NCBI RefSeq assembly: GCF_023684385.1
Contig: NZ_JAGSOJ010000001.1
Span: 806,001 to 870,000, forward strand
Reading direction: 5' to 3'
From: Oceanirhabdus seepicola
Lineage (GTDB): Bacteria > Bacillota > Clostridia > Clostridiales > Clostridiaceae
Length of the DNA stretch: 64,000 nucleotides
A program made the position numbers and the translations under genes. The notes beneath the pieces were generated by a model. The model had not been told where the DNA came from and did no database searches. It saw only the letters and a program-made list of their open reading frames with translations. This document shows, in pieces, positions 15,726 through 49,775 of the stretch (within the stretch, counting starts at the first letter, position 1; every line of letters starts with the position of its first letter).

Positions 15726-15774
15726 TAAACCTAAGTTTAATTATTTGACTATTTAATAAACCTAAGTTTATAAT
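15726..15774 (+). promoter_or_regulatory. dnd operon promoter with two identical operators
   Basis: TAAACCTAAGTTTA occurs twice (15726-15739 and 15757-15770), each a near-perfect palindrome, with starts 31 bp apart, i.e. three helical turns. A promoter TTGACT (15745-15750), 18 bp, TATAAT (15769-15774) lies between and over them, so the second site blocks the -10 region and the first lies upstream of the -35 box. They are the natural binding sites for the XRE protein encoded next. Confidence 0.7.
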
Positions 15775-15841
15775 ACTAAAAAAAGTAATATTGTCAACAA
15801 TTCTTAATAGTAGACTTCTATAGCTTGTACATACATACTGT

Positions 15842-15862
15842 GGTATAATTTAAAGTTGGAGG
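15842..15862 (+). promoter_or_regulatory. Extended -10 promoter and RBS of the XRE gene
   Basis: TGGTATAAT (15841-15849) is a perfect extended -10 element. It lies only about 20 bases before the ATG at 15872, with GGAGG at 15858-15862. A transcript from here would have a very short leader starting almost at the ribosome binding site. It could give operator-independent basal expression. Confidence 0.5.
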
Positions 15863-15871
15863 ATTGTTGAT

Positions 15872-16189
15872 ATGTGTAATTCTCTGGGAAAGAGAATCAA
15901 AAATTTAAGAGAAGATAGATTAAACAATGATAGTAAACTCAAGTGGTCTCTTGATGCACTTGCTAAAAGAATTAATGTTTCTAGCCAATCGCTTAGTAAA
16001 ATAGAAACTGGTAAGACAATTAACCCAAATATGGCTATTATAAAAAGCCTTGCTATAGAATTTGGTGTTTCGGCAGATTATCTAATATTTGGCCATAATA
16101 CTAAAACTAAAATTATAGTGGAAATCAATGGTGATCCTAGATATTTAAAAAACATTAATACTATTATTGAAATCACGTCAGATGATTAA
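15872..16189 (+). CDS. XRE-family repressor of the dnd operon
   Basis: A 105-residue protein with a classical XRE helix-turn-helix at residues 5-65 (LGKRIKNLREDRL, SLDALAKRINVSSQSLSKIE, then GVSADYLIFG). The rest is a short beta-like tail. It is the first gene of the + strand operon, 27 bp before dndC, and directly follows two identical palindromic operators over a promoter. In other Dnd loci the role of transcriptional repressor is played by DndB; no dndB is present here, so this protein is the likely replacement. That function is inferred from position and fold. Confidence 0.75.
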   Translation: MCNSLGKRIKNLREDRLNNDSKLKWSLDALAKRINVSSQSLSKIETGKTINPNMAIIKSLAIEFGVSADYLIFGHNTKTKIIVEINGDPRYLKNINTIIEITSDD

Positions 16190-16216
16190 TCTTCTCAATA
16201 CAAGTGAGGGATTGCA

Positions 16217-17821
16217 ATGACAACAAACGAAAAATTTAATATAGATGATGTTATAAAAGAAATTGAACGTGTATACCTTCATGATGATAGAGAATGGATT
16301 ATTGGATATAGTGGAGGTAAGGATAGTACAGTGGTTGTTCAGCTTGTATTCAAAATGCTTCTTAATTTACCTGCTGAAAAACGACATAAAAAAGTTCACA
16401 TTGTTTCTTCAGATACTTTAATCGAAAACCCAATGATTATTGACTATCTTAAAAACGCTTCTGAGTTAATTGGAAAATCAGCTCATGAACAAAATATACC
16501 ATTATATACTCATATGGTTCATCCTAGATATGATAATTCATTCTGGGCAAACATTATTGGAAAGGGGCTGCCTACCCCTACATCTATAAGATTCAGATGG
16601 TGTACAGAAAAACTAAAAATCCAACCTTCTAATCAGTTTATACAAGATAAAGTAGCTCAAAATGGTGAAGTTATTGTTCTATTAGGTGTAAGGAAATCTG
16701 AAAGTATAGCAAGAAGAAACCGTATCAATAAACGTGAAATTGATGGTTACTTACTAACACCTCATGCCACGTTAACTAACACTTATGTTTATAATCCTAT
16801 TGTGGATCTAGTGACTGATGATGTTTGGAGTGTTTTACTTTCAAACAACGGAGTAACCCCTTGGGGTGGAAATAATAATGAGCTTTTTGCACTTTATATG
16901 GGAGCTGAAAGTGGAGAATGTCCATTTACTATCACTAAAGATAGTGAAGGAAAAATTGAAACACCTTCATGTGGTAACTCAAGATTTGGCTGCTGGATCT
17001 GTACCGTTGTTAACGAAGATAAATCTCTAACAGGATTTATAGATAATGGTGAAGATTGGCTGGCTCCTTTATTAGATTTTAGAACGTGGATATTAAAGAT
17101 TAGAAATAATCATGAATATAGACAACAATATAGACGTGATGGAAATCATTATTATAAGAAAGCTTATTTAAAAAACCTACCAGTTAATGAAGAAGGTATT
17201 ATAGATGAAACTAGAATTAAACAAGGTGATAATGGTAAAGAGTTTATCATCTTAAATAATAAAGATATTGATATTCGCGAATTGACTAATAAAGACAAAT
17301 TATATTTAGAATTACTTCCTTTATCAGAAAGCAATAACCATCAAATAGATATGAGTAAAGTTCTTGAAGATGAAAAGGGTCCTTATATAAATGTACTTGG
17401 CTATGGTCCTTTCAACTTTAAAGCTAGAAAGACGATTTTAAAGGAATTATTAGAGATTCAACGTGATATGGATTATGAACTTATCACTATGGAAGAGTTA
17501 AAGGCTATTGATAAGATTTGGGATGATGAGGCAGATTTAAGTAAACGATCTTTAGTAGACATATATAATGAAGTTTTTGGTGAAAAACTCCCTTGGGATG
17601 AATATAAAAAACCAATGTTTGATAATATTGCTATGAGTACAATTTATAATGCTTGTGATAACGCTAATATTTCTAGAAACCTAATAAATAAGCTCCTCAT
17701 AGAGACTGAAAAAAATAAACATCAATCAAACAAAAGCAAATTAAGACACTCCATTGAGAAGACATTTAATCAAAAATATCTGCATAAAGAAGTGATTGAG
17801 GGGATAGAAAATGATAATTAA
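16217..17821 (+). CDS. dndC: DndC, PAPS-reductase-like Fe-S sulfurtransferase of DNA phosphorothioation
   Basis: A 534-residue protein of normal length for DndC. The ATP-pyrophosphatase P-loop YSGGKDSTVV lies at residues 31-40, and the family's conserved Cys residues that bind a 4Fe-4S cluster are C235 (GECPFT), C252, C259 and C262 (CGNSRFGCWIC). DndC uses ATP and sulfur from DndA to build phosphorothioate linkages in the DNA backbone together with DndD and DndE. The start has an adequate GTGAGGG upstream. The 3' end overlaps dndD by 11 bp, indicating coupled translation. The match to the family is strong. Confidence 0.95.
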   Translation: MTTNEKFNIDDVIKEIERVYLHDDREWIIGYSGGKDSTVVVQLVFKMLLNLPAEKRHKKVHIVSSDTLIENPMIIDYLKNASELIGKSAHEQNIPLYTHMVHPRYDNSFWANIIGKGLPTPTSIRFRWCTEKLKIQPSNQFIQDKVAQNGEVIVLLGVRKSESIARRNRINKREIDGYLLTPHATLTNTYVYNPIVDLVTDDVWSVLLSNNGVTPWGGNNNELFALYMGAESGECPFTITKDSEGKIETPSCGNSRFGCWICTVVNEDKSLTGFIDNGEDWLAPLLDFRTWILKIRNNHEYRQQYRRDGNHYYKKAYLKNLPVNEEGIIDETRIKQGDNGKEFIILNNKDIDIRELTNKDKLYLELLPLSESNNHQIDMSKVLEDEKGPYINVLGYGPFNFKARKTILKELLEIQRDMDYELITMEELKAIDKIWDDEADLSKRSLVDIYNEVFGEKLPWDEYKKPMFDNIAMSTIYNACDNANISRNLINKLLIETEKNKHQSNKSKLRHSIEKTFNQKYLHKEVIEGIENDN

Positions 17822-19985
17822 TAAACTAACATTAAAAAACTTCAGGTCGTATGAAGAAGAATACACTTTTGACTTTACCCCTAATGGTGATAAAAATGTA
17901 ATCTTGATTGGTGGAGAAAACGGCGCTGGTAAATCAACTATTTTTGAAGCTATTAAATTATGTTTCTATGGTCCAACTACCTATGGCTATCAAGGTTTTA
18001 ATTCTAATTATATCTCACGTATCAAAGCTAATATTAATAATAATGCTTTTAAACATCCAAAGGTAGAGTCTTTTATTGAACTTCAAATTGAAATGCCTGA
18101 AGGTAATACAATAAATAATTACAACATTAAAAGATTGTGGTCTTATGAAAAGAAGAAAATTAACGAAGAATATTCAGTATATAAAAATGGTACTTTATTA
18201 GCTAATGAAGAATTAAGTTATTTTGAAAACTATTTCAAATCAATTCTTCCTCCTATGCTCTTTGACTTTTTCTTCTTTGATGGTGAAGAATTATCTGACT
18301 TTTTCATCGGAAGAGGTGCTAAAACACACCTGAAAGAAGCCTTATTGAAATTATGTAATTATGATACAATCGATCTTCTTAGAAAACAAATACTTCAATT
18401 TCAACGTAGTAAATTACGCTCTAACACTGAAACATCAGACTTAGAAAAAAAATATTCTGAACAATTAGATGGATTACGTGCTATTGAACTTAAAATAGAA
18501 GATGAAGAAAAGAAAATCTTTGAACTTAAAGAAAAACTTGTGGATTTATCTGAAGAGAGACATTCTCTAGATATTCAATTCAGAAAAGAAGGTGGAATGT
18601 TAGAAACTGAACGTAGTAAGATTACTTCACAAATAAATAAACTTGAGGAATCTCGTACTATTACAAATCAAGAAATCAAAGATTTTAGTAATGATACACT
18701 ACCATTCTTAATCTTATCTGATAAACTTGTTGATCTTAGAGATCAAATAGAAAAAGAGGATAAATTCAATTTATATAACAATGTACGAAACAGACTTGAT
18801 TCAAATGTAATTAAAGATTATTTATCTGAAAATGATATTCTTAAATCTGGTAAAAATGCTGATGAAATTGCAGTGGATATTCTATCAACTATTACATCTA
18901 ATATGTTTGGAGAAGAATCCCAATATAACACATTTAAAGAATTGCATAAATTATCCTCTGACCAAAGTGCAGATGTATTATCATTAACCAACAATATCAT
19001 TTACAAAAAAAATGAACTAAAAAAAGAAAATAAAGATAAATATAATGATATAAACAATTTTTCTATTAAGATTGAGAAACTAAAAAAGAAACTAACATCA
19101 TCTGCTGATAATCACCTTGTAGAAACATACATTAAATCTCTTAAGAAAATTACAAATGAAATATCAGTATGTGATTATGAACAACAAAAATGTGAACTAA
19201 CCATTGAATCACTCTTAGAAGCAAAACAGAAAGCGGCTTATCATCTAGTAAGAGCTAAAAATGAGTATACAGCAGCTCTTCAATCAGATAATAATCTTCA
19301 GCTATCTGATGATGTATCTGATTTACTGGAAAGTGTTATAGTTGAATTAACATCCAACAAACTTAAAGAGATTGAAAATAATTATATGGAAATCTTCAGT
19401 AAGCTAATAAGAAAAAGTAAATATGTTGAAAATGTGATTATTGATTCTGATTTCAATATTACATTATATATAAATAGACTTTATAATACTTTAGAAATTG
19501 CAAATAAATATAATACTATTGGTTATGATGAAATGGATAGAAAGTTTGGAGATAAATTTATAGAGGGTCTATCTGATTACTATAACGCTCATACTAAGAA
19601 AGAGCTATCAAATAAATTATCTAATATTAAACAATCTGAGTTAATTAATCTTAATACTAAAGTAAATGTTGATGAATTTTCTAAAGGAGAAAAACAAATT
19701 TATATTCTATGCTTGATATGGGCTTTAATTAAAGCTTCTGATGTTAAAGTTCCTTTTATAATTGATACACCATATGCTCGTATAGATGAAAGTCATAGAA
19801 ACAGTATTACAACTGAGTTCTTACCTAAGGTAAGTAACCAAGTTATCATTCTATCTACTAACAAGGAAATCGATAAAGAATCTTATGATCTTATCCATAA
19901 ACATGTAGCTAATGAATACTTGCTTCAATATATGGATGTTGAAAGAAAAACTAAAGTTAGTAATAGATACTTTTTTGAGGTGTAG
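17811..19985 (+). CDS. dndD: DndD, SMC/Rad50-like ATPase of DNA phosphorothioation
   Basis: A 724-residue protein with Walker A GENGAGKST at residues 35-43, a long central coiled coil (about 200-480), an ABC-type signature FSKGEKQ and a Walker B/D-loop FIIDTPYARID near residue 649. This is the layout of SMC/Rad50-type DndD, which is thought to supply ATPase and possibly nicking or structural activity for sulfur insertion. The FEAIKLCFYGPTTYG segment following Walker A is typical of DndD. It overlaps dndC and ends two bases before dndE, so all belong to one message. Confidence 0.95.
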   Translation: MIINKLTLKNFRSYEEEYTFDFTPNGDKNVILIGGENGAGKSTIFEAIKLCFYGPTTYGYQGFNSNYISRIKANINNNAFKHPKVESFIELQIEMPEGNTINNYNIKRLWSYEKKKINEEYSVYKNGTLLANEELSYFENYFKSILPPMLFDFFFFDGEELSDFFIGRGAKTHLKEALLKLCNYDTIDLLRKQILQFQRSKLRSNTETSDLEKKYSEQLDGLRAIELKIEDEEKKIFELKEKLVDLSEERHSLDIQFRKEGGMLETERSKITSQINKLEESRTITNQEIKDFSNDTLPFLILSDKLVDLRDQIEKEDKFNLYNNVRNRLDSNVIKDYLSENDILKSGKNADEIAVDILSTITSNMFGEESQYNTFKELHKLSSDQSADVLSLTNNIIYKKNELKKENKDKYNDINNFSIKIEKLKKKLTSSADNHLVETYIKSLKKITNEISVCDYEQQKCELTIESLLEAKQKAAYHLVRAKNEYTAALQSDNNLQLSDDVSDLLESVIVELTSNKLKEIENNYMEIFSKLIRKSKYVENVIIDSDFNITLYINRLYNTLEIANKYNTIGYDEMDRKFGDKFIEGLSDYYNAHTKKELSNKLSNIKQSELINLNTKVNVDEFSKGEKQIYILCLIWALIKASDVKVPFIIDTPYARIDESHRNSITTEFLPKVSNQVIILSTNKEIDKESYDLIHKHVANEYLLQYMDVERKTKVSNRYFFEV

Positions 19986-19987
19986 CC

Positions 19988-20377
19988 ATGGGATTTAGAT
20001 TAAAAACATCAAAACAGACTAAAGATATATTTGAAGAGTTAGGTGCAAGCATAAATTTAAAACCTTTTGCATTAAGCAAGCTTGCAATTGCTCTATCTAT
20101 TCAAAGTGAAGAAGATATAAAAGATTATAAAAGTGATGTGAATGGATTGGAATTACAACGTTCAACTATAACTGGACAATATGATACAATCTATAGATGC
20201 TTGTTGGAACAAAATGCTAATAAACATTTAACAGATGATGAATACTTTCCTGAGTATACAAAAAAACATATTGATAGAGGGGCTAAACTTCTAATTGATA
20301 AATTTAAGTATTCTTCTGGAAAGAACCTAGAGGGTCTAATAAAATCTTTATTAAAAGAAGGAAATGGTGATCTATGA
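19988..20377 (+). CDS. dndE: DndE, small DNA-binding subunit of the phosphorothioation complex
   Basis: A 129-residue protein beginning MGFRLKTSKQTKDIFEELG, the normal opening of DndE. It is helical, with basic stretches. DndE binds nicked or duplex DNA and links the Dnd complex to DNA. A GAGGTG ribosome binding site is inside the end of dndD. Its stop overlaps the dndA start (ATGA), so the two genes are translationally coupled. Confidence 0.9.
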   Translation: MGFRLKTSKQTKDIFEELGASINLKPFALSKLAIALSIQSEEDIKDYKSDVNGLELQRSTITGQYDTIYRCLLEQNANKHLTDDEYFPEYTKKHIDRGAKLLIDKFKYSSGKNLEGLIKSLLKEGNGDL

Positions 20378-21546
20378 TTTATTTAGATAATAGCTCAACA
20401 ACTAAAATTGATCCAGAAGTACTAGAAGCAATGTTGCCATACTTACAAGATGAGTATGGCAATCCTTCTAGTAGCCATTATACTCTTGCTAAAAATGCTA
20501 AAAGGGCTGTTGAAGAAGCACGAGAGAAGTTAGCAAGTCTTATAAATGCCAAATCAGAAGAAATAATCTTTACAGCAGGAGCTTCTGAAAGCAATAACTT
20601 TGTAATAAAGGGAGTTTCTGATTATAAGAAAATGTACGAAAAGTCAGGTAATCATATTATTACTTCAAAAGTAGAACATAAGTCAGTTTTGCAAGTATGC
20701 AGATTCTTAAACGGCGAAATCTATATGAATAATGAAAAGAAACGACTGGGTAAAATAATTACACCTCAAGTTGATAGAGGTTATGAGGTGGATTTTCTTG
20801 ATGTGAATGAGTATGGACAGGTTACCCTTGATACATTGGAATCTACCATTAAAGATAATACCTCTTTAATATCTTTAATATGGGGAAATAACGAGATCGG
20901 ATCATTAAATGATATAGCTACACTCTCAAAGTTAGCAAAACAACGTAATATAACTTTTCATTCTGATGCAACACAAGTTCTTGGAAAGTTAACTATTGAT
21001 GTTGATAAAATATCAGCCGATTACTTAAGTTTCTCTGCTCATAAATTATATGGTCCTAAAGGAGTCGGCGCTGTTTATATGAGGAAACCCAAAAGAACTC
21101 CTGTTGATATCACTTCATTAATTCATGGTGGATATCAAGAAAACTTCTATAGAGCCGGTACACATGCAGTTCATAATATAGTTGGTTTCGGAAAAGCTGC
21201 CGAAATAGCTAAAAGAGATTTAGCTAAAAATATTGAAAAGTTAGAAAAACTTGAACTTCAAGCAAAAGAAATGATAAAAGCTAAATATCCTAATGTTGAA
21301 TTCTTAGGTGACCCAAATAATCATATTCCAGGTCTTATCGGTATGATTATTCCCGGAATAGTTAATGAAATGTTTATAAAAGAGCGTTGTGAGGACTTGG
21401 CTATTTCTGCTGGATCAGCTTGTGGAATTGGAGAACCTTCTTATGTTATTAATGAGATTGGTTATGGTAATGTTAGTAGTAGTTTTGTTAGATTAAGTTT
21501 GTGTAAACATAACAATATGAATGATATTCATATATTATTAAAATAA
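20374..21546 (+). CDS. dndA: DndA, cysteine desulfurase
   Basis: A 390-residue NifS/IscS-type aminotransferase-fold enzyme. The PLP-binding Lys224 lies in SFSAHKLYGPKG and the catalytic Cys350 in SAGSACGIGEPS; His in VEHKSV and GTHAVHN are also conserved. DndA takes sulfur from L-cysteine and passes it to DndC. The placement as the last gene of the dnd operon instead of the first is a known variant in which a dedicated desulfurase is retained. A convergent terminator follows 33 bp downstream. Confidence 0.95.
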   Translation: MIYLDNSSTTKIDPEVLEAMLPYLQDEYGNPSSSHYTLAKNAKRAVEEAREKLASLINAKSEEIIFTAGASESNNFVIKGVSDYKKMYEKSGNHIITSKVEHKSVLQVCRFLNGEIYMNNEKKRLGKIITPQVDRGYEVDFLDVNEYGQVTLDTLESTIKDNTSLISLIWGNNEIGSLNDIATLSKLAKQRNITFHSDATQVLGKLTIDVDKISADYLSFSAHKLYGPKGVGAVYMRKPKRTPVDITSLIHGGYQENFYRAGTHAVHNIVGFGKAAEIAKRDLAKNIEKLEKLELQAKEMIKAKYPNVEFLGDPNNHIPGLIGMIIPGIVNEMFIKERCEDLAISAGSACGIGEPSYVINEIGYGNVSSSFVRLSLCKHNNMNDIHILLK

Positions 21547-21579
21547 TAATAGTATATATATTAACAATATCTGAGAAGT

Positions 21580-21608
21580 AAAAGGAGCTGTTCAATACAG
21601 CCCCTTTT
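21580..21608. terminator. Shared terminator between the dnd operon and the dpd-like operon
   Basis: AAAAGGAGCTG (21580-21590) pairs with CAGCCCCTTTT (21598-21608), with one mismatch and a 7-base loop. It serves the convergent ends of both operons. The stem overlaps the stop codon of the minus-strand gene at 21607. Confidence 0.8.
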
Positions 21609-22281
21609 ATTTAAATCCAATAGTCAATTTTTCCACAAATCCATTATCTTTTATCCATGATAATACTTCTGGAGTAAGATCTTCTATAGTTGCTGTTCTA
21701 TTAACAACCATTCTTAAAAACATTTGTACTTCTTCAGTTAATTTTAATTGCTCTATAATATTTTGTCCTTCTTTAATAACTTCCCTAAACTCTAAAATAT
21801 CATTATCCGTTATTGGCCATCTATTTTTCATTCCATTAAGTCTAGTTAATATTTCATTAACTTTTCTTTTATCCTCAAATAAATTTGATAATGAATTTAA
21901 ACTATTTATTATCTCTTTTGTATTTTCATTAGCATAAATAACCCACTCATTTCTTAATTTATTTGATTTACCTTCTATACATGCAACTATATATTTAAAA
22001 TCTTGATCTCTTAATATATGCCCTCTTCGTCTTTTCTTTAATATATCATCAATCTTAGATATTAACTCACTTATATCTTCTTTTGGGAATATGTTGCTAT
22101 CCAACTTATTTAGTCCTATTACAGAATCTCTATAATGTCTAATTAACTCTAAGTTCTTCTTTAGGTATTTATTAGTATATTCATAAGTAGTTATTTCTCG
22201 TTTCATATCGCTTATCTCTTCTTTAGCATTGATAAGCTTACCTGTTTCATTTATCTTTTTAATTAATAGCAATCTATTCAC
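21607..22281 (-). CDS. Hypothetical coiled-coil protein, last gene of the dpd-like operon
   Basis: A 224-residue soluble helical protein. Residues 10-60 (INETGKLINAKEEISDMKRE and on) and 75-100 form coiled coils; there is a basic patch LKKRRRGHILRDQDFKYIV at about 81-99. No catalytic motif is seen. It overlaps the start of the ATPase gene end by 8 bp and must be translated with it, so it is probably a partner subunit of the DpdH-like ATPase. In known dpd clusters the gene after dpdH is dpdI; I cannot confirm that this is the same family. Confidence 0.6.
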   Translation of the reverse strand: MNRLLLIKKINETGKLINAKEEISDMKREITTYEYTNKYLKKNLELIRHYRDSVIGLNKLDSNIFPKEDISELISKIDDILKKRRRGHILRDQDFKYIVACIEGKSNKLRNEWVIYANENTKEIINSLNSLSNLFEDKRKVNEILTRLNGMKNRWPITDNDILEFREVIKEGQNIIEQLKLTEEVQMFLRMVVNRTATIEDLTPEVLSWIKDNGFVEKLTIGFK

Positions 22282-25200
22282 CTCCCTGAAGTTCTTTAAT
22301 AATCTCGTTTAATTCATTGATATATTCATCTTGTTTATCTTCTTCTTTTTTCTTTATGTTAGTTACGTCATCTAACTCTTGTGCTGATTTACTATATTTA
22401 TTATACTTCTCCTCAACATATCGATTCATAGAGCGTACTAATTCATATAGTTCAGATGTATTATTAATATTATTTTTAACTATGTAATCTAATTTTTCAA
22501 GGTTAGATTTATTAATAATATTTTCATTATTACATAATAATTTTAATGCATACTTTCCATCTATACTTTTAGCAACTATCTTATTAAACTCCATACCATA
22601 AGTTTCATTAACACTTTCCATTTTAACTGTTAAAAAATGTATAAAATCACTGAATACCTGTTCTATATTTTGTTTACTACTTTCATCTTCACTAAACTCT
22701 AATAACTTTTTAATTTCTTGATTCCTATCAGATATCTCTTTTATAAGACTATCTATAGATATATTTAAGGTATTTCCTAATAAAGCTTTATATACTTTAT
22801 AGGATTTATGCATATTGCTTGTAGATGCAACTATATCTTTAATATCTATACTATTTAATTGCCATTTACCATTCATATGCTTTTTTATAACCTTAAGTAC
22901 TTCGCTAGCATCTATAAAAAACTTATCTGTTATTTGTGGATTAACTGTTCCTAAAATACAGTTGTGATATCTTATACACATTTCATGATTATTATTTATA
23001 TCACTTTCACCTTTCATTATGACTTCACTAATTTTACCTAGTTTTTCTATATTACGTCTATTTAATCTATCTTGTGTTCTAAATATTTTACTATATATAA
23101 TTGATAACTTATCTTCTATGGATATATTTGCATTTATAACATTCATCATAAAATCATTATATATAGCTAATTCAAAACTACTTATATTGATTTCTGAAGA
23201 TATGTCTTGTTTATTTATAAACTCACTTAATTTATCTCTATTTTTCATAACCCAATTTGTTACGTTTATAAGGTATCCTGGTGCCTCTTCAAATCCCCAA
23301 GATTTTTTACCTAAATTTCTCCAAGCACATATAGCTTGTAATAAATAGTAGTTTTCTTCAGTTCTATTTAATACATACCCCTCTGTTATTTTTACATTTT
23401 GTCCTTCTATATGAAGATTACCTAATACAAAGGTTGATTCTATGACTAACCTTGATATGTCTTCCATATCCCAATCTATAGTAGTTTTTATTAATCTACA
23501 TATATCTTCTCTATAAGTCTTATGATCTATTAAAACATCTTTGTCATAAAACCAATTTTTTAAAGTCTCCAATGCCTTATTATATTTTTCTCTGTTTTCA
23601 TCTCTCTTCTTTGGCATTTCCGTATTTGGTATAGGCATCTGTTCTTTATCTAATTTTGTATAACTTAAATTTTCTTTAACCCTATTATCTAAATTATTTT
23701 TAAGAGTTCTCTCTACTTTTTTAGTATCTTCTTTCTCTGTCTTTTTTACTATTGGTTTATTTGCAGGTGCTTTACTACTATCTATTGGAACCCCTTTTAT
23801 GAAAGGAAGTCTAAAGAACTCATATGCTTCCTTTTCAACACCTGATAAAAATTCTTTTCCATTTCCATTGTTTGAGTATGCAGTACCATTTCCCCATACT
23901 CTCATAAAACAACTTAAACGTTCAAACTCTTCTCCCTCAACTTCTTTATGAAGTATCTGTTCATGTAATGGCATATTCCAAATTGGAACCTTAAATGCAC
24001 CTTTAAATACCTTATCAGAATAAGGAAAATTATCACCATCATTTATATAATCATGAATTATTTTCTTTATTATTTCTTTTAGTAACATTCTAGGGGTTTT
24101 GTCTTCTAATGTTTTATATAATGATATTAATGCATGATCATTAAAAGGAAATAATGTAAAAGTTCTATTATCTATTCTATAGTTACTCCATTCATGCTCC
24201 ATATACCTATTAGCTATAGGAATCTCACTATCACTAGCCCCATTTTCAACCCATATCTCTAATTTTTTTCTATCTATATATATTGCATTTAGGTATCTAG
24301 CTGCTATATCTAAAATATCTTCATCTTTTGAGAAAATTGATTCCTCATCAATTTTAACTCTTCCAGTTATTCTAGACTTTATATTACTTGGGAAATGAGA
24401 CTTATAGTATGCTTCTGTAACCCCAACTACAGATAATATTCTACAAAGGCCATCATCATTGCCATGCTCTGTTATTAAAGTCTCTACTAATGCTTTATCT
24501 ATTCCTGTGAAAGAAGTTAAGTCTTCTATAAATAAGGTTAGATTTTTCCCTTGTGACTTAAGCTTTCTTCTAATATTTAAAAATATCTCAGAAAAATCCT
24601 GTGAATTTAACTTTATACAGCTTTGAATTACTGTATCTAATTTTGAATTCAAATAAGCTATAGCATTTAATTTAAATTTCTCATTTTCTATTAATCTTTC
24701 ATGACACTTTATAGTATGCTTTGCTGCATTTTCACTTATTTCTCTATCTAAATTGCTTCCAAACTCACAGTCAAAATCCATTTCATTAAATGTTATATCT
24801 ATTTCTTTTACTTCATTTACATTTTCATTTTTAAGCTTACTCTTAATCCTTTCAATAGGTCCATTTTCAATGAAAAGTAATTGTTCTTGCACATTCGGAT
24901 CTTGTATAAATGATGCCAGCAACTTTCTCTCTCGAGACTTTAATATACAATCTTCATCTTCTTCACTTAATATTTCTGTAGCAAAGGCTAGGTTTATCAT
25001 ATAGCTAAGCTTTTCACTACTTAAGTTGCTATTAGCTTCTAAAAGCTTTTTAATCTCTATTTCATTTAATAAACTTCTTACATCCTTATGCTCAACTATT
25101 TGTTTTATTGCACCTTGTAAAGTATTTTTTGATCTCTCAATCATTATAGATATTTCACTATTACTATCTATTTCACTCTCATATATATATTTCATCCATT

Positions 25201-25453: not shown

Positions 25454-25454
25454 A

Positions 25455-26240
25455 TTACTCACTCTCCTTTATGATTATTTCTGAAATACACTCAGGTATA
25501 TCATGTAATTCCATTCTATATAAGTCCCAAACTTCTGTAGCATCTTGAGTAAGGCTTAACTTTATTACTCCCATATCATGTAGTGTTCTTAATGCAAAGG
25601 ACATAGTAAATGATATATTATGACCATTTATATTTTCTTTTAATTCTGGACATTTCATCAAGCACCAATTTATAAAATCACTTACTCTTATTTCTTTTCC
25701 TCTTTTTATATTCACATCACATTCTATAGCATCTTTTATTCTTAAATATGGATTAGGTATAAATTGTGATTCATGCATATACCCTATTCCTATAAATGTT
25801 GCCCAAAATCTCCAAGCTAGTCCAAATTCTTTATTTAACTCTTTAAATTTATTCTGATTAGATATTACATCGTCCATTGTTGAGTATACTAATAGTTCAT
25901 TTCCTTTATATAAATACCAAGAAGTAAAATCAAAAAATAGATTACTATCATTTCCTTCAAAAACTCTACTTGCAAAATACTTTCTGAATTCATTTCCACT
26001 TCTTAGATGCTTTTTATCAAAATTCAATTCAAATATTTCTTGATTAACAACAACAAGCCTAGTATCTTGAATATATTTTAAAACTTTTTTTATCTCATCT
26101 TGCTTACCATTACATAATCCTGGAGGTTGAATAATATTCATTATATTTTTTTCAGTAAATCTACCTTGAGCTATAAACTTTAAGGTTGAATATACTCTTT
26201 TAGGGGTTATTTCTTTTCTTATCTTTTCATCTAAAAGCAT
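25455..26240 (-). CDS. dpdG: DpdG-like protein
   Basis: A 261-residue soluble protein without known catalytic motifs. It looks like two winged-helix-type halves (KRVYSTLKFIAQGRFTEKNI at the start, and a late FALRTLHDMGVIKLSL segment), with a Trp/Phe-rich centre (FFDFTSWYLYKG, LAWRFWATFIGIGY). It lies between a RecQ-like helicase and a P-loop ATPase, the same slot as dpdG in dpdE-F-G-H. The identification rests on that order and on size more than on a diagnostic motif, so the symbol is tentative. Its stop codon overlaps or abuts the next start. Confidence 0.5.
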   Translation of the reverse strand: MLLDEKIRKEITPKRVYSTLKFIAQGRFTEKNIMNIIQPPGLCNGKQDEIKKVLKYIQDTRLVVVNQEIFELNFDKKHLRSGNEFRKYFASRVFEGNDSNLFFDFTSWYLYKGNELLVYSTMDDVISNQNKFKELNKEFGLAWRFWATFIGIGYMHESQFIPNPYLRIKDAIECDVNIKRGKEIRVSDFINWCLMKCPELKENINGHNISFTMSFALRTLHDMGVIKLSLTQDATEVWDLYRMELHDIPECISEIIIKESE

Positions 26241-40245: not shown

Positions 40246-40258
40246 CCAAATCATTTCA

Positions 40259-43200: not shown

Positions 43201-45526
43201 TCTTCAATTTATCAATATAGTAATTTATTATACCTTGAAGAATTTCTCTACAATCACCTGTATTAATTAAGTTAATTTTTACAGCTGCTTCAGATGTCAA
43301 ATTAAATAAATAATTAAAATGATATATAAATTCATCTATTTTTTCTTTTACCAATTTAGAAACAAATTCTCTAGATCCTTTATATCTTAAGATATCATTC
43401 TTAATATAGTATTTCCATTCTAGTGAATGTTGTTGTTCTATTGGTTTATATAGCTTTTTATCCTCTCCACATATATATGGTAAAAGATAAATTGAATCAA
43501 GCTTTTTTGCTAGTTGTTCATTTATTTTTTCATTTTCAATTGTTTCAGTTAATCTGATTTGATACATAACATTAATTGGATTCAAAGGATAAAATAACAT
43601 TTCCTTATCTCCATCTTCTCTTTTTATAACACCAACTCTTAAGAGGTTTTTATGATGTTTTTTTGCATACTCCCCTTCTTTTAGTTCATTAGCAGCGCCC
43701 AGAAAAGCCTCTACATAGTTTTTGCTTAAAACAATTAATTCTTCATTATAATATGCTAAACTTGGTATCAAATTATTAACTCTATAATATTCAAGCAATT
43801 GAAAATATGCAGTTTTAAAATTATTATTTATTTCAATATCTTCTCCTATTAACTCCCCATCTCTTTCAATGAAACTACAGTAATCACTATTTATAATGAT
43901 CTGCTCTCTTTCAAGGTTTTCTCTAAATTCATCTCTAGTAAAATAAACTCTTGTACCTTGAATAAGTTTACCATTATCATATTTAAAACTTTCCTTTTCT
44001 TCCCTCTTCTTTGTCCAGACATTAAACCCAGTAATAACTGTAGCTCTATTTCCTTCATCCTTTATAGCAAGAGGAATTCCTAAATCTAATATATTTAAAT
44101 TAAATTTAATTAAATCTGTATTTTCATCCTGTTCTACTTCATTTATAACTCTTATTTTACTATCTAAAGAGTCTATAATAATCTCACTCTGATTTTCACT
44201 TATAATCTTGTTTTCTATAAAGTCCTTTTCTAAATTGAATTCAAATTCTCTTCTCTCAGTATTTAGCATTAAATATTTCTCTTTTGGTTTCACAACTAAA
44301 TTATAATTAGTTTTTATCACTGAATTATCAAATACTGATCTATCAATATCCAATACAAGAATCTTAAATTCAAATGTTACCTTATCCTTATATTTAATAG
44401 AATTAAAGCTAACATTTCCTGGTACATGATCAATTTCAACTATCAGTTTTTTACCACTAGCTTTAGCTGTAGCTTCCTGATTTTTAGCTAGCGTTATAAA
44501 TCTTTGACTTACTCTGTCATCAAACTTTAATTCTAAACTTATTTTTTGTTCTCTATCTTTATTAAATATAATTATATTTTTCTTTCTTTTTTTAGCTGCA
44601 GTATTCCCTTCTTCTTTTTCCCAGAAGTTTTCTGCATCCAAACTAATCAATTTACTCTCTACATACTCTATTTTTTTATCTTTTTTCTTACTTTCAATAG
44701 ATTGCTTGATTTCTTTATATTCAACTTCTTCCCATTCAACCTTTTTTAACTTTTCAACACCATTTTCATCTAAAAACTTTTCTAGTAAAGTATCTATATC
44801 TCCACCATATTTGTGTATATTATCTACTCTTGCATAGTTATCTGCATTATCTTCTAACCTATTAAAGGCTTCTTTTTTATTGTTTATTTCATCAAGCTTA
44901 CTATCATAAAAGATTCCAAAGTTTTTAAATTCATCTTTGTTAATATCCCCTTTGTTTATTACAGTCAATAAATCCGAATACTGTAATACCGAAGTACTAT
45001 CCTCTGAAATTTGCTCACTTCTCTTTTTTAAATCAAACTCAATTATATATTTATCACCAATTGATAAATCACTATTTTCGATTTTTTCTTTAATATCTTC
45101 TGTAATGGAACTAGTATGGAATGGCATTCCCTCTTTATTGAAGCTTCTTGCCCCCCCAACTATACTATCTAATGTAGTATTATGAATAAATAATATTGCA
45201 GTATTTTTAAATAAATCGCTATTTGTTCCTCCAACTTCATTACGAAGTCTCGTTAAATAATCTGGCTTAATATTATTTATAGTAGCTGAGATAATAACCT
45301 TAATTCCATTAACAACTATACTATATGTTACATATTCACTTGCATTTTCAGCTGCTTTATATTTAAATTCTTGTGCTTCAGAAACTTTTTTAAGTTCCTC
45401 ATATAAAACTTTTACTTCATCTTCCTTTTCAAATTGAATCTCAAATTTATCTCCATTTTTAACTTCTACATCATTGAAATACTTAACAACTTTTTTGGCT
45501 AAATAATTATAAAACTGATTTAACAT
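40259..45526 (-). CDS. dptH: DptH, HerA/FtsK-type ATPase of phosphorothioate-dependent restriction
   Basis: A protein of about 1,755 residues, in the size range of DptH/DndH. The long N-terminal part is helical; the last 350 residues are a HerA/FtsK-like motor with Walker A IIGTMGTGKTQFTK, a LLIFDYKGDY strand, Walker B LILVDEADNFL and a GTILSTQLLSHF sensor segment. A Glu/Lys-rich disordered linker precedes the motor. DptFGH restrict DNA that lacks phosphorothioation. The upstream in-frame starts GTG 45547 and ATG 45535 are possible; ATG 45526 is preferred because it begins MLNQFYNYLAKK. The gene overlaps dptG. Confidence 0.9.
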   Translation of the reverse strand: MLNQFYNYLAKKVVKYFNDVEVKNGDKFEIQFEKEDEVKVLYEELKKVSEAQEFKYKAAENASEYVTYSIVVNGIKVIISATINNIKPDYLTRLRNEVGGTNSDLFKNTAILFIHNTTLDSIVGGARSFNKEGMPFHTSSITEDIKEKIENSDLSIGDKYIIEFDLKKRSEQISEDSTSVLQYSDLLTVINKGDINKDEFKNFGIFYDSKLDEINNKKEAFNRLEDNADNYARVDNIHKYGGDIDTLLEKFLDENGVEKLKKVEWEEVEYKEIKQSIESKKKDKKIEYVESKLISLDAENFWEKEEGNTAAKKRKKNIIIFNKDREQKISLELKFDDRVSQRFITLAKNQEATAKASGKKLIVEIDHVPGNVSFNSIKYKDKVTFEFKILVLDIDRSVFDNSVIKTNYNLVVKPKEKYLMLNTERREFEFNLEKDFIENKIISENQSEIIIDSLDSKIRVINEVEQDENTDLIKFNLNILDLGIPLAIKDEGNRATVITGFNVWTKKREEKESFKYDNGKLIQGTRVYFTRDEFRENLEREQIIINSDYCSFIERDGELIGEDIEINNNFKTAYFQLLEYYRVNNLIPSLAYYNEELIVLSKNYVEAFLGAANELKEGEYAKKHHKNLLRVGVIKREDGDKEMLFYPLNPINVMYQIRLTETIENEKINEQLAKKLDSIYLLPYICGEDKKLYKPIEQQHSLEWKYYIKNDILRYKGSREFVSKLVKEKIDEFIYHFNYLFNLTSEAAVKINLINTGDCREILQGIINYYIDKLKKTKPDNLLPIDVNIYSNEISNVFEELSYYSTSEEIEHNLKIDLSNRALSKDYTKEDILNICIQKIHFYKKDIEDEKYEYSHVTFYEMEQSVEEKDSNMNDIITGISLDGLISGVPSKFLGNSYRTGFGNRYMKKGESNILLKLVNKMNALVKVAQTDSPFSEEECRTTAISDESRDKLEKIYDSTHWVTFIDPKVDLNFFKNSNTSRDLLIIHYSDQYTSSSGYDAITVTRKSKQYQVIIDEFLQEKNIEVNDKTSVNVINCFNAVNGDWLLRLISSNGQFPREKLSIISAIKLSLSYFYHKDIVWLPISLEEILRVSKGAGLSSVEGLFSVSNLKGEGQYSDDLLLIGIEKIDDDINVHYYPVEVKIGENRPNVIKKAKKQAYKTRNYLEKHLIDLQDEEENRRFSKKMYRNFMMQLAVVSAEKLKLYELWPEQNWDMIIDSEVRTKLLNDDYTISTELDQYIGRGSIMSFKQGIAFDDEAQLIEINQAELEEAYNEEEFNKGNEILEITFSEDAGYRNIASELESLKEKFVENQSDFKVENLLFSKYKRLNKEDETGSVEGNEEKPTTNISEDKTGYQGGTTTKVKKDEAAISEVDEPKEPMKVLFGHDVKHDREINWYPTDTSKTFHTNTGIIGTMGTGKTQFTKSLIYQLHKNDIYNVDGKKLGLLIFDYKGDYIDDQFVNATDAKVYDIFHLPFNPLALVKGKKIKPLLPLHTANTLKETIANAFNLGVKQQTLLRDVIMEAYERRGIHKAKVPTWDKTPPTLDDVCRIYMDREKVQEDSLYAALKNLSEFEIFEPDPTNTMSLFECIDGVTVINLSGYDEGIQNLVVAITLDIFYTQMLVIGESKTEGQYRQLTNLILVDEADNFLRKNFDSLRKILKEGRMFGVGTILSTQLLSHFSTGDNEYASYILSWIVHNVADLSNKDVRFIFNTKAKQEEEVIYNKIKSLEKHHSLVKFGNEDKPIYVKDKAFWELMK

Positions 45527-46925
45527 ATTGTGCATCACCACTATCACTCTTCTTCTCTAATATATTTAACTTCTCGAATAACTGAGATATCTTTGCTTTA
45601 GAGTCTCTATCCAAGAAAACTCCTCTTTTTTCATATTCAATAAATAAATCTTTTAATTTCATCTTTTCATTGTCTTTTAAACTTATCTTTGTTAAAAATA
45701 TGATATATTCTTCTGTAAGATTAAGAGTATATCCTAATCTTCCTCTTTGTCTTAAAAAATTCACTTTACAGAACTCTACAAACCAAGTACAGTAGTCCTT
45801 TTGTCTCTCTTTTCTACCTGAGTTGATAAACTGGTAATTTATTGATTTATATAACTCATAAATTATATTAAGTATGTCATCATCATACTTTCTTTCAAAA
45901 TTCATTCTACTAAAATCAACATCACCAACATAATTCTTATAGTTATCTAACAATTCTTGAAAAGATTTTTTACTTTCTTCATATCCCTCTATCTTCATGT
46001 TATTTACAATATTTTTTATATCTAAATAGCTACAAACTTCCTCCCTATTATTATGATTTATAAGCTCTAAACAATTTGCATGAGAAAATAAAGTTTGTAA
46101 TGAGCCATCTACTAGTTTCCATCCACTCTCATAACTCAATCTTGCCTTACTTGCTTTTTCCCAATCTAAATTAAAATAAACTTCTATAGGCTTTTCTATT
46201 GTCGCATCGAACATTTTATTTAAGTTTAAAGAAAGCTGTATTACATAAAACATATAATAAAACTTCAATAATTTTTCAATATTATTATTGTAAAATGAAG
46301 GTTTCTTTAGCATATACTTTAGGTCATCCATAAATACATCAGATACATACGGAACTAAATTTTCATATGTCACTTTTCTACTTTTACTTTCATTTGAATC
46401 TGGAAGACTCTCTACTATAAGTTTTAGCATTATATTATCTGGAATAGTATCATATGCTTTTTTTATAAGTTCTTCAGTTTCACTATATTCCTTACATAAT
46501 ACATCACATAAAAATTTACCTAATTTTTTATTACTATTCTTAGCTTGAATATAATTCATTACTTTAGGATGAAAGAAGACTAAATTATCTTCCTTATCAA
46601 AAAATAATTCTTTAATTATATTTTTAAAAACACTTTTATCTTTTTCATCAATTTCAATCTTTGCGATAATTTTATCTGTAAATTCATCGTTTATAGCTTC
46701 TTTAATTTCTTTTTTATTAGATATTCCTCTTGAAAATTGTCCTATACAATTTTTAAAATTAATAATTTGATCTTTAAATCTAGCTTTATATTGTGTTGTA
46801 TACGGTAATATGGAAATCTTATTACCTGTATTATGCTGCAAAGAATTTATTTTCTTTGTATTATCTTCAGCTTCTACAAACTTATAACTGTTTCTCACAT
46901 CTTTTAAATCAATTTTATACATCAT
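45507..46925 (-). CDS. dptG: DptG, phosphorothioate-dependent restriction protein
   Basis: A 472-residue helical protein with no catalytic motif, in the fixed position between dptF and dptH. The start MMYKIDLKDVRNSYKFVEAE and the Tyr-rich C-terminal half (SYESGWKLVDGSLQTL; YTLNLTEEYIIFLTK) fit DptG. GGAGAG precedes the ATG. Its stop lies inside the start region of dptH, so the two are translationally coupled. Identification depends on context and general resemblance; with DptF and DptH on both sides it is secure. Confidence 0.85.
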   Translation of the reverse strand: MMYKIDLKDVRNSYKFVEAEDNTKKINSLQHNTGNKISILPYTTQYKARFKDQIINFKNCIGQFSRGISNKKEIKEAINDEFTDKIIAKIEIDEKDKSVFKNIIKELFFDKEDNLVFFHPKVMNYIQAKNSNKKLGKFLCDVLCKEYSETEELIKKAYDTIPDNIMLKLIVESLPDSNESKSRKVTYENLVPYVSDVFMDDLKYMLKKPSFYNNNIEKLLKFYYMFYVIQLSLNLNKMFDATIEKPIEVYFNLDWEKASKARLSYESGWKLVDGSLQTLFSHANCLELINHNNREEVCSYLDIKNIVNNMKIEGYEESKKSFQELLDNYKNYVGDVDFSRMNFERKYDDDILNIIYELYKSINYQFINSGRKERQKDYCTWFVEFCKVNFLRQRGRLGYTLNLTEEYIIFLTKISLKDNEKMKLKDLFIEYEKRGVFLDRDSKAKISQLFEKLNILEKKSDSGDAQYVKSVL

Positions 46926-46928
46926 ATT

Positions 46929-48722
46929 CTATCTCTCCATAAAACAATATTCATTATAGTCATCTAAATATAGCCTATACTTCTTAATTTCACCGGCTAT
47001 CTTCTGCTCAAATAATACCTCTTCCTTCTGGCTACCTAATCTCTGAATTTTTTCAATAAAATCCACGAAATTAATAAAGTTATTCTTATCTTTTCTATTC
47101 GGTCTGTACCCTTTTCTAACTTTACAAAGCAAGTTATATAGCAAATAATCTATATCAACCATTACTTTAGTTTCTTCTGATTTACTTTTCTTGTATTTTA
47201 AAATAAGTCTTGTAATAAACTTAAATAATTCTCGCTCTTCTTTTTCTTCATAATCCGCAATATCCCCAACTATATCCAACTTTTGGTATGTATTGAATTT
47301 ACCTTGATTTTTACCAATAGTCATATTAATTGCATTATCTTCATCATTTTGCCCATTCCACTTATATATAGCATCTTTTACACCTGTTAATAATCCCTTA
47401 AGTTGTCTTTTAGAACCTTTATTCCAATAGTACAGATATCTCATATATTCTGTATAAATTTCATCATCAAATATTTCTTTTCTATCTTTAGCCATAAAAG
47501 AATATAATCTTAAATAAATCTTTATAACATCTTCTTTTACATTTTCCTTATCTATTTTTGTTTTAGTCTTTTCATATAATATTGTTTCATCTTTTAAGGA
47601 AGATAACATATACTGTAAATCAGTAGAATCAAGGTTTTCCTCAAAAATTTTGCTTAAATTAGAAGTGTTGTTTAACTTAATAATTACTGCATCCATTTTC
47701 TCACTTCTATAGTTAACTGGATCTATATTCTCCAATGCTTCAAGAATATTAGAGGTATCCTTATGAGTAAATAATATATTTGCAGTTAAGCTTTTTATAT
47801 ACTCCTTAAAAGGTAACTTTTCAATTTTCTTAATAAGTTTTGAAATAGTTAAATTTTCAAAACAATTATCAACTAAAATATCGTATATAAAGTTAAGTAA
47901 TGCTCTAGTTGAAATAATAACTTTTTCTTTTATCATTACTTCTATTAATTTATCTATAATTCTTTTCTGTACAAATTCATCCCCTATAAAATCATAGTTA
48001 TTTTTTATAGGACATTTATAAGAACAACTACAATTACTACAATTATTACTATATGACATAAAGAACGGATTTTCATCATCTTTATTAGCTATTTTACCAA
48101 TTATATCTTTAATATATTGAGATGTAGGTCCTTCTTCCATTAAAGAGTACATATGATAATCACTGAAGTTAATATATTGAAAATAACTATTCTGTTCAAA
48201 TTTACTTTCCTCAATATTATCATGTAGTATTTTCTTTTTAGTTATATATTCTTTAAGTTTAGTAAATCTGTGTCCAAATTCAGAATCAATAAAATTTGTA
48301 AGGGTACCTAAATTAATTGCTAATATTAATTTTTCCTTATGTCCTTCATATAATTTATCATCTGAATAAACATCTAAAACTTCATTCAGTGTTTCAATAG
48401 ATGTTTTCTCAGGATCTAAACTTTCTGTAGCGTCATTATGAATACTAAAATCACATAAAATTTCTGGATTCTTATTTTTAAAATATGATATTAAGTGCGA
48501 CTTACCATCACCAACACTACCACAAACCAATAATAATTGAGGCTTATCGGAATTATGAGCACTCTTTATTAAATTCCAAAACTCATGCTGTACTGGTCTT
48601 TCGACATGCATGTACTCTTTAAAATTACTAAAAGAATCAATATTCTCAACTGCTTCTTTTGATGATGTTCTAAGTCTCTTTAATGTATTAATTAAACAAT
48701 TTTCATTTTGCAATTCATTCAC
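46929..48722 (-). CDS. dptF: DptF, P-loop ATPase of phosphorothioate-dependent restriction
   Basis: A 597-residue protein with a P-loop GSVGDGKSHLISYF at residues 68-81, the version of Walker A typical for DptF, followed by a DFSIHNDATES strand. A compact Cys cluster CSNCSCSYKC (C228, C231, C233, C237) probably binds zinc or an Fe-S cluster. The start may be GTG 48722 or TTG 48713; TTG has AGGTGA upstream and the GTG abuts the stop of the HNH gene. It is the second gene of the HNH-dptF-dptG-dptH unit. Confidence 0.9.
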   Translation of the reverse strand: MNELQNENCLINTLKRLRTSSKEAVENIDSFSNFKEYMHVERPVQHEFWNLIKSAHNSDKPQLLLVCGSVGDGKSHLISYFKNKNPEILCDFSIHNDATESLDPEKTSIETLNEVLDVYSDDKLYEGHKEKLILAINLGTLTNFIDSEFGHRFTKLKEYITKKKILHDNIEESKFEQNSYFQYINFSDYHMYSLMEEGPTSQYIKDIIGKIANKDDENPFFMSYSNNCSNCSCSYKCPIKNNYDFIGDEFVQKRIIDKLIEVMIKEKVIISTRALLNFIYDILVDNCFENLTISKLIKKIEKLPFKEYIKSLTANILFTHKDTSNILEALENIDPVNYRSEKMDAVIIKLNNTSNLSKIFEENLDSTDLQYMLSSLKDETILYEKTKTKIDKENVKEDVIKIYLRLYSFMAKDRKEIFDDEIYTEYMRYLYYWNKGSKRQLKGLLTGVKDAIYKWNGQNDEDNAINMTIGKNQGKFNTYQKLDIVGDIADYEEKEERELFKFITRLILKYKKSKSEETKVMVDIDYLLYNLLCKVRKGYRPNRKDKNNFINFVDFIEKIQRLGSQKEEVLFEQKIAGEIKKYRLYLDDYNEYCFMER

Positions 48723-49763
48723 CTACTTTTTTATTAAATCAACTTCTATCTCTATACCTTTAGCTTTCACAAAATTCCATAAATCAAATCCACAAAATTC
48801 TGCTGAGGTATAATAATTTCGAAAATTCTTTTCACTATACAAACTAAAATCTTTATTAACTAAATAATTATCTATTTTTTTTAGATTATTATCTCTATAA
48901 ATAATTTTATCCAAGTAATATTCATCTGCTAATCTATTATTTTTTGATAAGTTGCAGTTGGGACATGAAGCTACCAAATTCCACAATCTATCATTCTTTA
49001 TAAAAGACCATGGAATGAAGTGATCTATATGAACCTTTTCATAACTAAGTTTATTTCCACAATAAAAACAACTTGTCTCACATCTATTAAACTGAAAAAA
49101 GAAAAAATCCTTATATATTCTTAAACTGCTTCTCTTAGATGCATCATGTAGTTTTTCGGCAATTCCATAACAATTATCTTTTTTATTAACTTTTTCTAAA
49201 AAGTCAATCCAACATAAATTATTTATCTTTAATAGGGTAATTGAGTGTTTATATAAAAAGCTTAATACAGAAGGATTAAATTTTAAGTAATTTTCTCTTA
49301 AAGAAAAAGTATATAACTCTCCCCCCGAATCTCCATATAACGCACCTACCACATATTTTTTCCCTTCTTTAAAAACTTCTTTTTCCATCTTATCCTTTAT
49401 ATTAATCGGAATTTTATCATAATTAGCAGTACTTATCTCAGGATAATCGTCAATGTATTTGTCAAATATTTTTCCTATACTAGATCTTCCGCCTTTAATC
49501 ATCTTAGTACATTGAGTTAACTCATGCTTAACAATAAGATTCCAATATATTCTGCTAAATCTAATAAATATATCTGAAATCTTAATTTCTCCATTTAAAT
49601 TAACATCATATGAGCTTTCTAATAAAGCCTTTAGAAATCCAAACTTATATGAAGTAGCATTTGTAGTTTTATTAGATAAGATATAATTAAATATTTTCCA
49701 AATATCATCATCACATAAGTCACATCTAGAATACATTCCTGATTTTAATTTCCATCCTTCCAT
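48723..49763 (-). CDS. HNH endonuclease linked to dptFGH
   Basis: A protein of about 346 residues with a C-terminal HNH nuclease: CFYCG (zinc Cys pair), VHIDHFIPWSF (catalytic His/Asp-His), LWNLVASCPNCNLSKNNR (central Asn, second Cys pair and final Asn/Lys). The N-terminal 230 residues are helical, with another CDLC pair near residues 14-17, and may recognise DNA or the Dpt complex. ATG 49763 is preferred, with GAGGG just upstream; GTG 49775 is the alternative. It is the first gene of the dpt operon and ends directly at the dptF start. DptFGH lack an obvious nuclease of this type, so it is a good candidate for the cutting subunit. Confidence 0.8.
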   Translation of the reverse strand: MEGWKLKSGMYSRCDLCDDDIWKIFNYILSNKTTNATSYKFGFLKALLESSYDVNLNGEIKISDIFIRFSRIYWNLIVKHELTQCTKMIKGGRSSIGKIFDKYIDDYPEISTANYDKIPINIKDKMEKEVFKEGKKYVVGALYGDSGGELYTFSLRENYLKFNPSVLSFLYKHSITLLKINNLCWIDFLEKVNKKDNCYGIAEKLHDASKRSSLRIYKDFFFFQFNRCETSCFYCGNKLSYEKVHIDHFIPWSFIKNDRLWNLVASCPNCNLSKNNRLADEYYLDKIIYRDNNLKKIDNYLVNKDFSLYSEKNFRNYYTSAEFCGFDLWNFVKAKGIEIEVDLIKK

Positions 49764-49775
49764 TTGGTCCCTCAC

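What the first reader, a model, noticed from the sequence alone, without database searches (positions are those of the whole stretch)
15726..49775. Composite phosphorothioation island: Dnd modification with two restriction-type modules, one of them Dpd-like
The sequence shows dndC-D-E-A on one strand and, converging on it, HNH-dptF-dptG-dptH and a separate nine-gene operon whose last part has the order SNF2, RecQ-like, DpdG-like, DpdH-like. Dpd genes are known from 7-deazaguanine DNA modification, but no DpdA, QueC/D/E or preQ0 gene is here. The Dpd-type effector genes may have been recruited to a phosphorothioation system or may form an independent defence unit beside it. I am not aware of a description of this three-part layout.
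Basis: partly seen in the sequence, partly recalled or inferred. Interest (0 to 1): 0.9.

Follow-up and report, generated by a model that had tools for sequence, protein, structure and literature searches.

The report
Sulfur-marking island with borrowed attack genes
This stretch of a bacterial chromosome carries genes for putting sulfur into the DNA backbone next to two predicted attack modules, one of which is built from Dpd-type genes known from a different DNA mark plus a predicted AddAB-like helicase-nuclease pair; the same set recurs in several other bacteria, so whole attack machines have likely been swapped between DNA-marking systems.

Summary
The + strand carries dndC-D-E-A. Converging on it are HNH-dptF-dptG-dptH and a nine-gene operon: NERD-UvrD, a 929-aa protein, two small unknowns, then homologues of DpdE, F, G, H and also DpdI. 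DpdE, F and H match by HMM; G and I clearly only by profile-profile comparison. All score below NCBI's equivalog cut-offs. The 929-aa protein has a predicted AddB/RecC-like fold. DpdA is not found in this genome.

The layout is not a one-off. Nine further loci with the 929-aa family were found. Eight of the ten genomes have DndC over cut-off; none has DpdA. Seven have dnd on the same contig, and five have all three modules. Background DndC is 4 of 391 and 18 of 348 genomes. On the stretches read, eight DpdH loci of the other kind carry DpdJ and mostly DpdA, and no Dnd or Dpt.

So the Dpd core exists in two builds: with DpdA and DpdJ (K, D in some), or with Dnd and a NERD-UvrD/AddB-like pair. 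I found no description in print. Best reading: PT-guided restriction with an AddAB-like shredder as the likely effector. That function is inferred; nothing was tested at the bench.

The parts
15872..16189 (+). HTH (Cro/CI-type) gene just upstream of dndC, where relatives have dndB
   Evidence: PF01381 41.9 bits; DndB model PDLC02658 finds nothing in the own genome; the gene before dndC is DndB in three relatives tested with PADLOC
16217..17821 (+). DndC, sulfurtransferase
   Evidence: TIGR03183 456 bits over cut-off
17811..19985 (+). DndD, ABC-type ATPase with Walker A
   Evidence: TIGR03185 370 bits over cut-off; Walker A
19988..20377 (+). DndE
   Evidence: PF08870 83 bits over cut-off; TIGR03184 below cut-off
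20374..21546 (+). DndA, cysteine desulfurase (below the DndA equivalog cut-off, best PADLOC match DndA)
21607..22281 (-). DpdI homologue
   Evidence: hhalign 96.7% against a canonical DpdI set; position after DpdH
22274..25462 (-). DpdH homologue, P-loop ATPase
   Evidence: NF041065 282 bits, near full length; Walker A at residue 77
25455..26240 (-). DpdG homologue
   Evidence: hhalign 98.9%, E 1e-17
26258..28747 (-). DpdF homologue, RecQ-like helicase
   Evidence: NF041063 536 bits
28752..32129 (-). DpdE homologue, SNF2/RapA-like ATPase
   Evidence: NF041062 380 bits; RapA the closest solved relative
32150..33292 (-). U380: operon gene of unknown function; C-terminal ~110 residues tentatively like the Hsp70 substrate-binding sandwich
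   Evidence: low-confidence model (pLDDT 45), Foldseek and VIA matches to DnaK/Hsp70, weak HscA HMM hit (E 0.009)
33308..33958 (-). U216: small operon gene of unknown function; a gene of similar size sits in the same place in 8 loci
   Evidence: no PADLOC, Pfam or NCBIfam match; alignment
33951..36740 (-). X929: predicted AddB/RecC-like subunit, four conserved cysteines, no Walker A, no recognisable nuclease motif
36743..39964 (-). NERD nuclease domain fused to UvrD-type helicase (AddA-like partner), first gene of the unit
   Evidence: PF08378 45 bits, PF00580 156 bits; D and E-x-K residues kept in 9 of 9 readable NERD domains
40259..45547 (-). DptH (DndH)
   Evidence: TIGR03237 710 bits over cut-off
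45507..46925 (-). DptG (DndG)
   Evidence: TIGR03236 171 bits over cut-off
46929..48722 (-). DptF (DndF)
   Evidence: TIGR03238 282 bits over cut-off
48723..49775 (-). HNH endonuclease abutting dptF
   Evidence: PF13395 40 bits, PF01844 39 bits

Best explanation
This locus is a three-module island, found in at least five genomes: genes for sulfur (phosphorothioate, PT) marking of DNA (dndCDEA), the PT-linked restriction genes dptFGH with an HNH gene, and a nine-gene unit in which homologues of DpdE-F-G-H-I follow a NERD-UvrD helicase and a predicted AddB-like protein; the nine-gene unit likely reads the sulfur mark as self and would degrade DNA that lacks it. Shown here: gene content, order, recurrence, linkage to dnd, absence of DpdA, and exclusion between the two builds in the 18 loci compared. 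Inferred: DndCDEA writes PT on host DNA; DpdE (SNF2-type ATPase), DpdF (RecQ-like helicase) and the ATPase DpdH, with the small G and I subunits, scan DNA and make the self/non-self call; NERD-UvrD and X929 form an AddAB/RecBCD-like complex in which UvrD is the motor, the N-terminal NERD domain is the nuclease, and X929 is a structural or scanning subunit that has lost ATP binding and nuclease activity but keeps the cysteine pattern that holds the iron-sulfur cluster in AddB (the AddB pattern is recalled). In canonical Dpd clusters the helicase/nuclease part is DpdJ, with DpdK and DpdD in some. DptFGH would then be a separate second arm.
Confidence: 0.55

Rival explanations
1. The nine-gene unit is an independent, PT-blind defence system that merely sits in the same defence island, using DNA ends or stalled forks as its trigger.
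For: Defence genes cluster (established knowledge); two of ten genomes show no DndC over cut-off; the relative order of the modules differs between Neobacillus and the window; AddAB-like complexes load on DNA ends without any mark (established knowledge).
Against: dnd on the same contig in 7 of 10 and no Dnd on the stretches read beside 8 DpdJ-type DpdH loci; background DndC only about 1-5%; co-directional dpdI-dndC at 93 bp in Tissierellaceae.
Confidence: 0.22
2. The unit acts downstream of DptFGH or on PT-DNA itself: DptFGH or HNH makes the first cut and the NERD-UvrD/X929 complex with DpdE-I finishes the digestion or repairs host breaks.
For: dptFGH is in the same island in 5 loci; AddAB/RecBCD-type enzymes process breaks (established knowledge); the HNH protein of the window has a relative next to X929 in L002 (89.6 bits).
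Against: The Tissierellaceae and Thermosipho contigs show dnd with the pair but no dptFGH on the 19-23 kb held; in Neobacillus dptFGH lies on the far side of dnd.
Confidence: 0.18
3. The unit uses a 7-deazaguanine mark made elsewhere in the genome, like an ordinary Dpd system.
For: Homology of E, F, G, H and I to Dpd proteins.
Against: The DpdA model finds nothing in 10 of 10 genomes; DpdB, J, K and D are also absent from the 10 loci as fetched.
Confidence: 0.03

Closest known systems
Dpd system (7-deazaguanine in DNA), e.g. G685 of the order of Neobacillus (L058/L059) and Paenibacillus sp. 37 pART37 (L048)
   Same: Homologous DpdE-F-G-H-I in the same order; the DpdH tree places them next to the window's group
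   Different: They carry DpdJ, DpdK, DpdD and a DpdA-type transglycosylase (weak, 42 bits, in pART37) and no Dnd; the window has Dnd, NERD-UvrD and X929 instead. pART37 also has a distant UvrD/X929-like pair without NERD
DndABCDE with DndFGH (DptFGH)
   Same: dndC, D, E, A and dptF, G, H all present
   Different: A third unit of nine genes is linked; the main text of the 2024 re-analysis of Dnd neighbourhoods (PMC10853773; abstract, sections 16-17 and word searches seen) holds no mention of Dpd, deazaguanine, AddA, AddB, RecB, RecQ or UvrD; it does list NERD nucleases near dnd
AddAB / RecBCD / AdnAB helicase-nucleases
   Same: UvrD-type motor plus a predicted AddB/RecC-fold subunit with four conserved cysteines
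   Different: The nuclease is an N-terminal NERD domain on the motor; the AddB-like subunit lacks Walker A and a recognisable nuclease motif, and the AddB sequence model does not match it
BRIGADE (PMC12458937) and BREX-related capture (PMC12839542) composites
   Same: Published cases of Dpd-type parts mixed with parts of other defence systems
   Different: BRIGADE keeps a predicted deazaguanine gene set and YprA helicases; the BREX composite has BREX parts and HerA with a TGT in a subset. The passages seen link neither with Dnd: PMC12458937 names Dnd once, as cargo of mobile elements; PMC12839542 does not name DpdE, F or H

Membership tests
Dnd phosphorothioate modification | DndC, DndD, DndE | tested here: met
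   TIGR03183 and TIGR03185 over cut-off; PF08870 over cut-off, TIGR03184 below its cut-off
Dnd phosphorothioate modification | DndA cysteine desulfurase | tested here: inconclusive
   Best PADLOC match DndA 408 bits, NCBI equivalog 366 of 480 needed
Dnd phosphorothioate modification | DndB regulator | tested here: not met
   No match in the own genome; that marking does not need it is recalled
Dnd phosphorothioate modification | PT present in the DNA | not testable with these tools
   Needs mass spectrometry
DndFGH/DptFGH restriction | DptF, DptG, DptH over NCBI cut-offs | tested here: met
Dpd system | DpdA transglycosylase | tested here: not met
   0 of 1 own genome, 0 of 10 genomes with X929, own included
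Dpd system | DpdE-I homologues | tested here: met
   all below NCBI equivalog cut-offs, so a separate subfamily
Dpd system | DpdJ, DpdK, DpdD | tested here: not met
   0 of 10 loci as fetched, some on cut contigs
Dpd system | queC/D/E for preQ0 in the cluster | tested here: inconclusive
   None among the island's genes; the outer parts of the window were scanned only in part
AddAB/RecBCD helicase-nuclease | UvrD-type SF1 motor | tested here: met
   PF00580 156 bits; Walker A and DEFQ
AddAB/RecBCD helicase-nuclease | AddB/RecC fold in the partner | tested here: met
AddAB/RecBCD helicase-nuclease | AddB sequence model | tested here: not met
   TIGR02773 is not among the NCBIfam matches of X929 at E <= 1 nor listed at its place in the genome
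AddAB/RecBCD helicase-nuclease | Nuclease activity | not testable with these tools
   NERD D and E-x-K residues kept in 9 of 9; that these are the catalytic ones is recalled

The most novel reading that the evidence does not exclude
The DpdE-I proteins form a mark-independent self/non-self machine that evolution plugs into different DNA marks: with DpdA it reads 7-deazaguanine and drives DpdJ, with Dnd it reads phosphorothioate and drives a RecBCD-like NERD-UvrD/X929 shredder. This would be a further, so far undescribed PT-dependent restriction type beside DndFGH and the Ssp systems.
Probability: 0.5. Interest if true: 0.88.

Novelty: new variant of a known kind. Interest (0 to 1): 0.74.

Why it matters
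How Dpd effectors recognise self DNA is, as far as I know, open. A natural experiment in which the same gene core is tied to a base mark in some bacteria and to a backbone mark in others narrows where mark recognition can lie: either the core reads both marks, or recognition sits in the parts that are swapped (NERD-UvrD, X929, U216, U380 versus DpdJ and its companions). It also names a candidate PT-guided, AddAB-like nuclease and an uncharacterised protein family (301 proteins at E <= 0.001 among 7,994 scored) for which PADLOC gave only a weak 15.7-bit match to a Cas4 model.

Tried and rejected
Reading as an ordinary Dpd system: rejected, DpdA not found. Reading as a one-off juxtaposition: rejected by the nine relatives and their flanks. 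X929 as the housekeeping AddB: rejected, that gene is elsewhere. Broad sampling gave almost nothing: X929 in 1 of 39 near relatives (the own genome) and 2 of 391 of the class (own genome and one distant, 818-aa relative); DpdH in 1 of 391 of the class (own) and 2 of 348 of the order of Neobacillus. So the survey rests on the pattern-and-profile scan of genome contigs, ten loci in all. Viral contigs: 20 and 97 pattern stretches, none a relative. Plasmids: one distant X929 relative and seven DpdH records. Contig-length coincidence as a linkage proxy: 17 of 120 listed DpdH homologues share the longest-contig length with one of 120 listed X929 homologues (both lists capped), against 0 or 1 for eight shifted lengths; suggestive only. 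U380 by structure: pLDDT 45, so the Hsp70-like matches are a lead; the PDB sequence search with its profile gave nothing better than E 0.22, and that with the X929 profile nothing at E <= 1. Promoter and terminator scans were at or below chance level. One search used a guessed accession that turned out to be DrmMII and is used only for the window's place in the genome. Literature for novelty: searches (20 papers listed each) and passages of six papers (PMC10853773, PMC12839542, PMC12707154, PMC12458937, PMC11888242, PMC12904381); nothing seen links DpdE-H with Dnd, apart from the known DndB-like domain of DpdB (PMC11888242). Subscription papers are mostly not held, so this is not proof of absence. 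Rows dropped: L008 and L009 are not in the DpdH tree and L009 not in the DpdF tree because their contigs do not hold those genes; the four plasmids without DpdE are not in the DpdE tree. The NERD count leaves out L008, whose gene is cut. The queries include proteins of some of the loci scored.
Full report
What is there. The window lies at C1:806001-870000 of a 5.3 Mb low-GC genome. Its + strand has an HTH gene and dndC-D-E-A. Converging on these are two - strand units: HNH-dptF-dptG-dptH, and, 294 bp downstream of dptH, a nine-gene unit that ends 60 bp from the end of dndA. Family searches place dndC, dndD, dptF, dptG and dptH over NCBI cut-offs, dndE over Pfam's, and dndA below the DndA equivalog cut-off. 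In the nine-gene unit, the fifth to ninth genes are homologues of DpdE, F, G, H and I, in the order seen in annotated dpd clusters. E, F and H match with 380, 536 and 282 bits, below the equivalog cut-offs of 500, 550 and 450. G and I are near noise with single HMMs but clear by profile-profile comparison: 98.9% over almost full length and 96.7% over the C-terminal half, with a mismatched control at 0.1%. The first gene joins a NERD nuclease domain to a UvrD helicase.

Recurrence. A profile-based scan of genome contigs gave nine relatives. DndC over cut-off is in 8 of the 10 genomes (window included), DpdA in 0 of 10. The exceptions are two MAGs: G427, with only a PAPS-reductase/ferredoxin protein and an operon contig of 12.4 kb cut at both ends, and G428, where an IS110 transposase follows dpdE and the contig ends soon after. 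dnd is on the same contig in 7 of 10. In an eighth, Clostridiales 43-6, the X929 contig ends in a weak DndA-like fragment (31 bits) and the dndC contig in a DndA fragment (101 bits). Five loci have all three modules: window, Neobacillus, Alkalihalobacillus, Halalkalibacter, Cellulosilyticum. In Neobacillus dptFGH lies beyond dnd, so module order is not fixed. In Tissierellaceae dndC follows dpdI on the same strand after 93 bp. Background rates of DndC over cut-off: 4 of 391 in the class, 18 of 348 in the order of Neobacillus; each count includes one genome of the survey. The ten-genome set is small and its taxa differ from the background sets, so I give no p-value.

Two builds of one core. Seven plasmid records and one genome of the order of Neobacillus hold other DpdH genes. 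In the stretches read around these eight, DpdJ is in 8, DpdA in 7 (398-1567 bits in six, 42 bits in Paenibacillus sp. 37; none in the 37 kb of Nostoc), DpdK and DpdD in 4, and Dnd or Dpt in 0; the four alphaproteobacterial ones lack DpdE. In the ten X929 loci DpdA, B, J, K and D are in 0; DpdE is in 8 and DpdH in 6, the contigs of L008 and L009 being cut and Thermosipho and Clostridiales 43-6 showing no DpdE-I. Trees: DpdH separates the PT-linked rows by one branch (98/97), DpdF does so weakly (77/81), DpdE does not (2 changes). The nearest other rows are the DpdA-linked operons of G685 and Paenibacillus, compatible with one exchange, which DpdE neither confirms nor rules out. The dependence looks one-sided: of 18 and 4 DndC genomes in the two background sets, 1 and 1 have DpdH.

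Mechanism. Most likely DndCDEA marks self, the DpdE-I set inspects DNA, and NERD-UvrD/X929 degrades unmarked DNA, with DptFGH as a parallel arm. Only the anatomy and linkage are shown. Rivals are a PT-blind neighbour system and a clean-up role behind DptFGH; both remain possible because no PT-reading domain was identified and nothing was tested in cells. A published re-analysis holds that DndABCDE and DndFGH are commonly decoupled (PMC10853773, abstract), a caution for any claim from neighbourhood alone.

Known or new. That 2024 re-analysis lists NERD and other nucleases near dnd; its main text does not contain Dpd, deazaguanine, AddA, AddB, RecB, RecQ or UvrD (abstract, sections 16 and 17, word searches). 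Composites of Dpd parts with BREX/HerA (PMC12839542, passages) and with YprA systems (BRIGADE, PMC12458937, passages) are in print. Six searches of the held library listed no paper whose title or abstract start describes a Dnd-linked DpdE-I operon. I rate it a new variant of a known kind.

Noticed in passing
window 51849-56843: Three tandem large serine recombinases just outside the island, suggesting it rides on an integrative element; ends not mapped.
   Followed up: partly
window 9084-12564: PLD-nuclease/SF2 helicase/DUF3427 protein and a NUDIX gene on the other side of the island, possibly another defence gene.
   Followed up: no
L055:15410-20721, L048:31327-36401, L037:7185-11960: Distant UvrD plus X929-like pairs without the NERD domain: on a Geobacillus plasmid without Dnd or Dpd, beside a dpdJ/K/D-type cluster in Paenibacillus, and in genome G003. 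They may be a wider AddAB-like defence family.
   Followed up: partly
window 32150-33292: U380 C-terminus resembles the Hsp70 substrate-binding sandwich in a low-confidence model.
   Followed up: partly
L006:4773-6830 and L009:3625-5691: Related ~685-aa UvrD-type helicases directly upstream of NERD-UvrD (42% identity); by eye the N terminus looks like a RelE-type domain, untested.
   Followed up: no
L002:12682-16097: Next to X929 in Clostridiales 43-6: an HNH gene, a RelA/SpoT-domain protein and a DpdB-like protein (44 bits).
   Followed up: no
L027:19214-L028:1608 and L006:12728-15149: Second DndD-like gene with a small DndE-sized gene beside the main dnd operon in Alkalihalobacillus and Thermosipho.
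   Followed up: no
window 59805-59856: Near-perfect 24-nt inverted repeat (96%) between a MarR-type gene and a divergent cyclase-type gene, possibly an operator.
   Followed up: no
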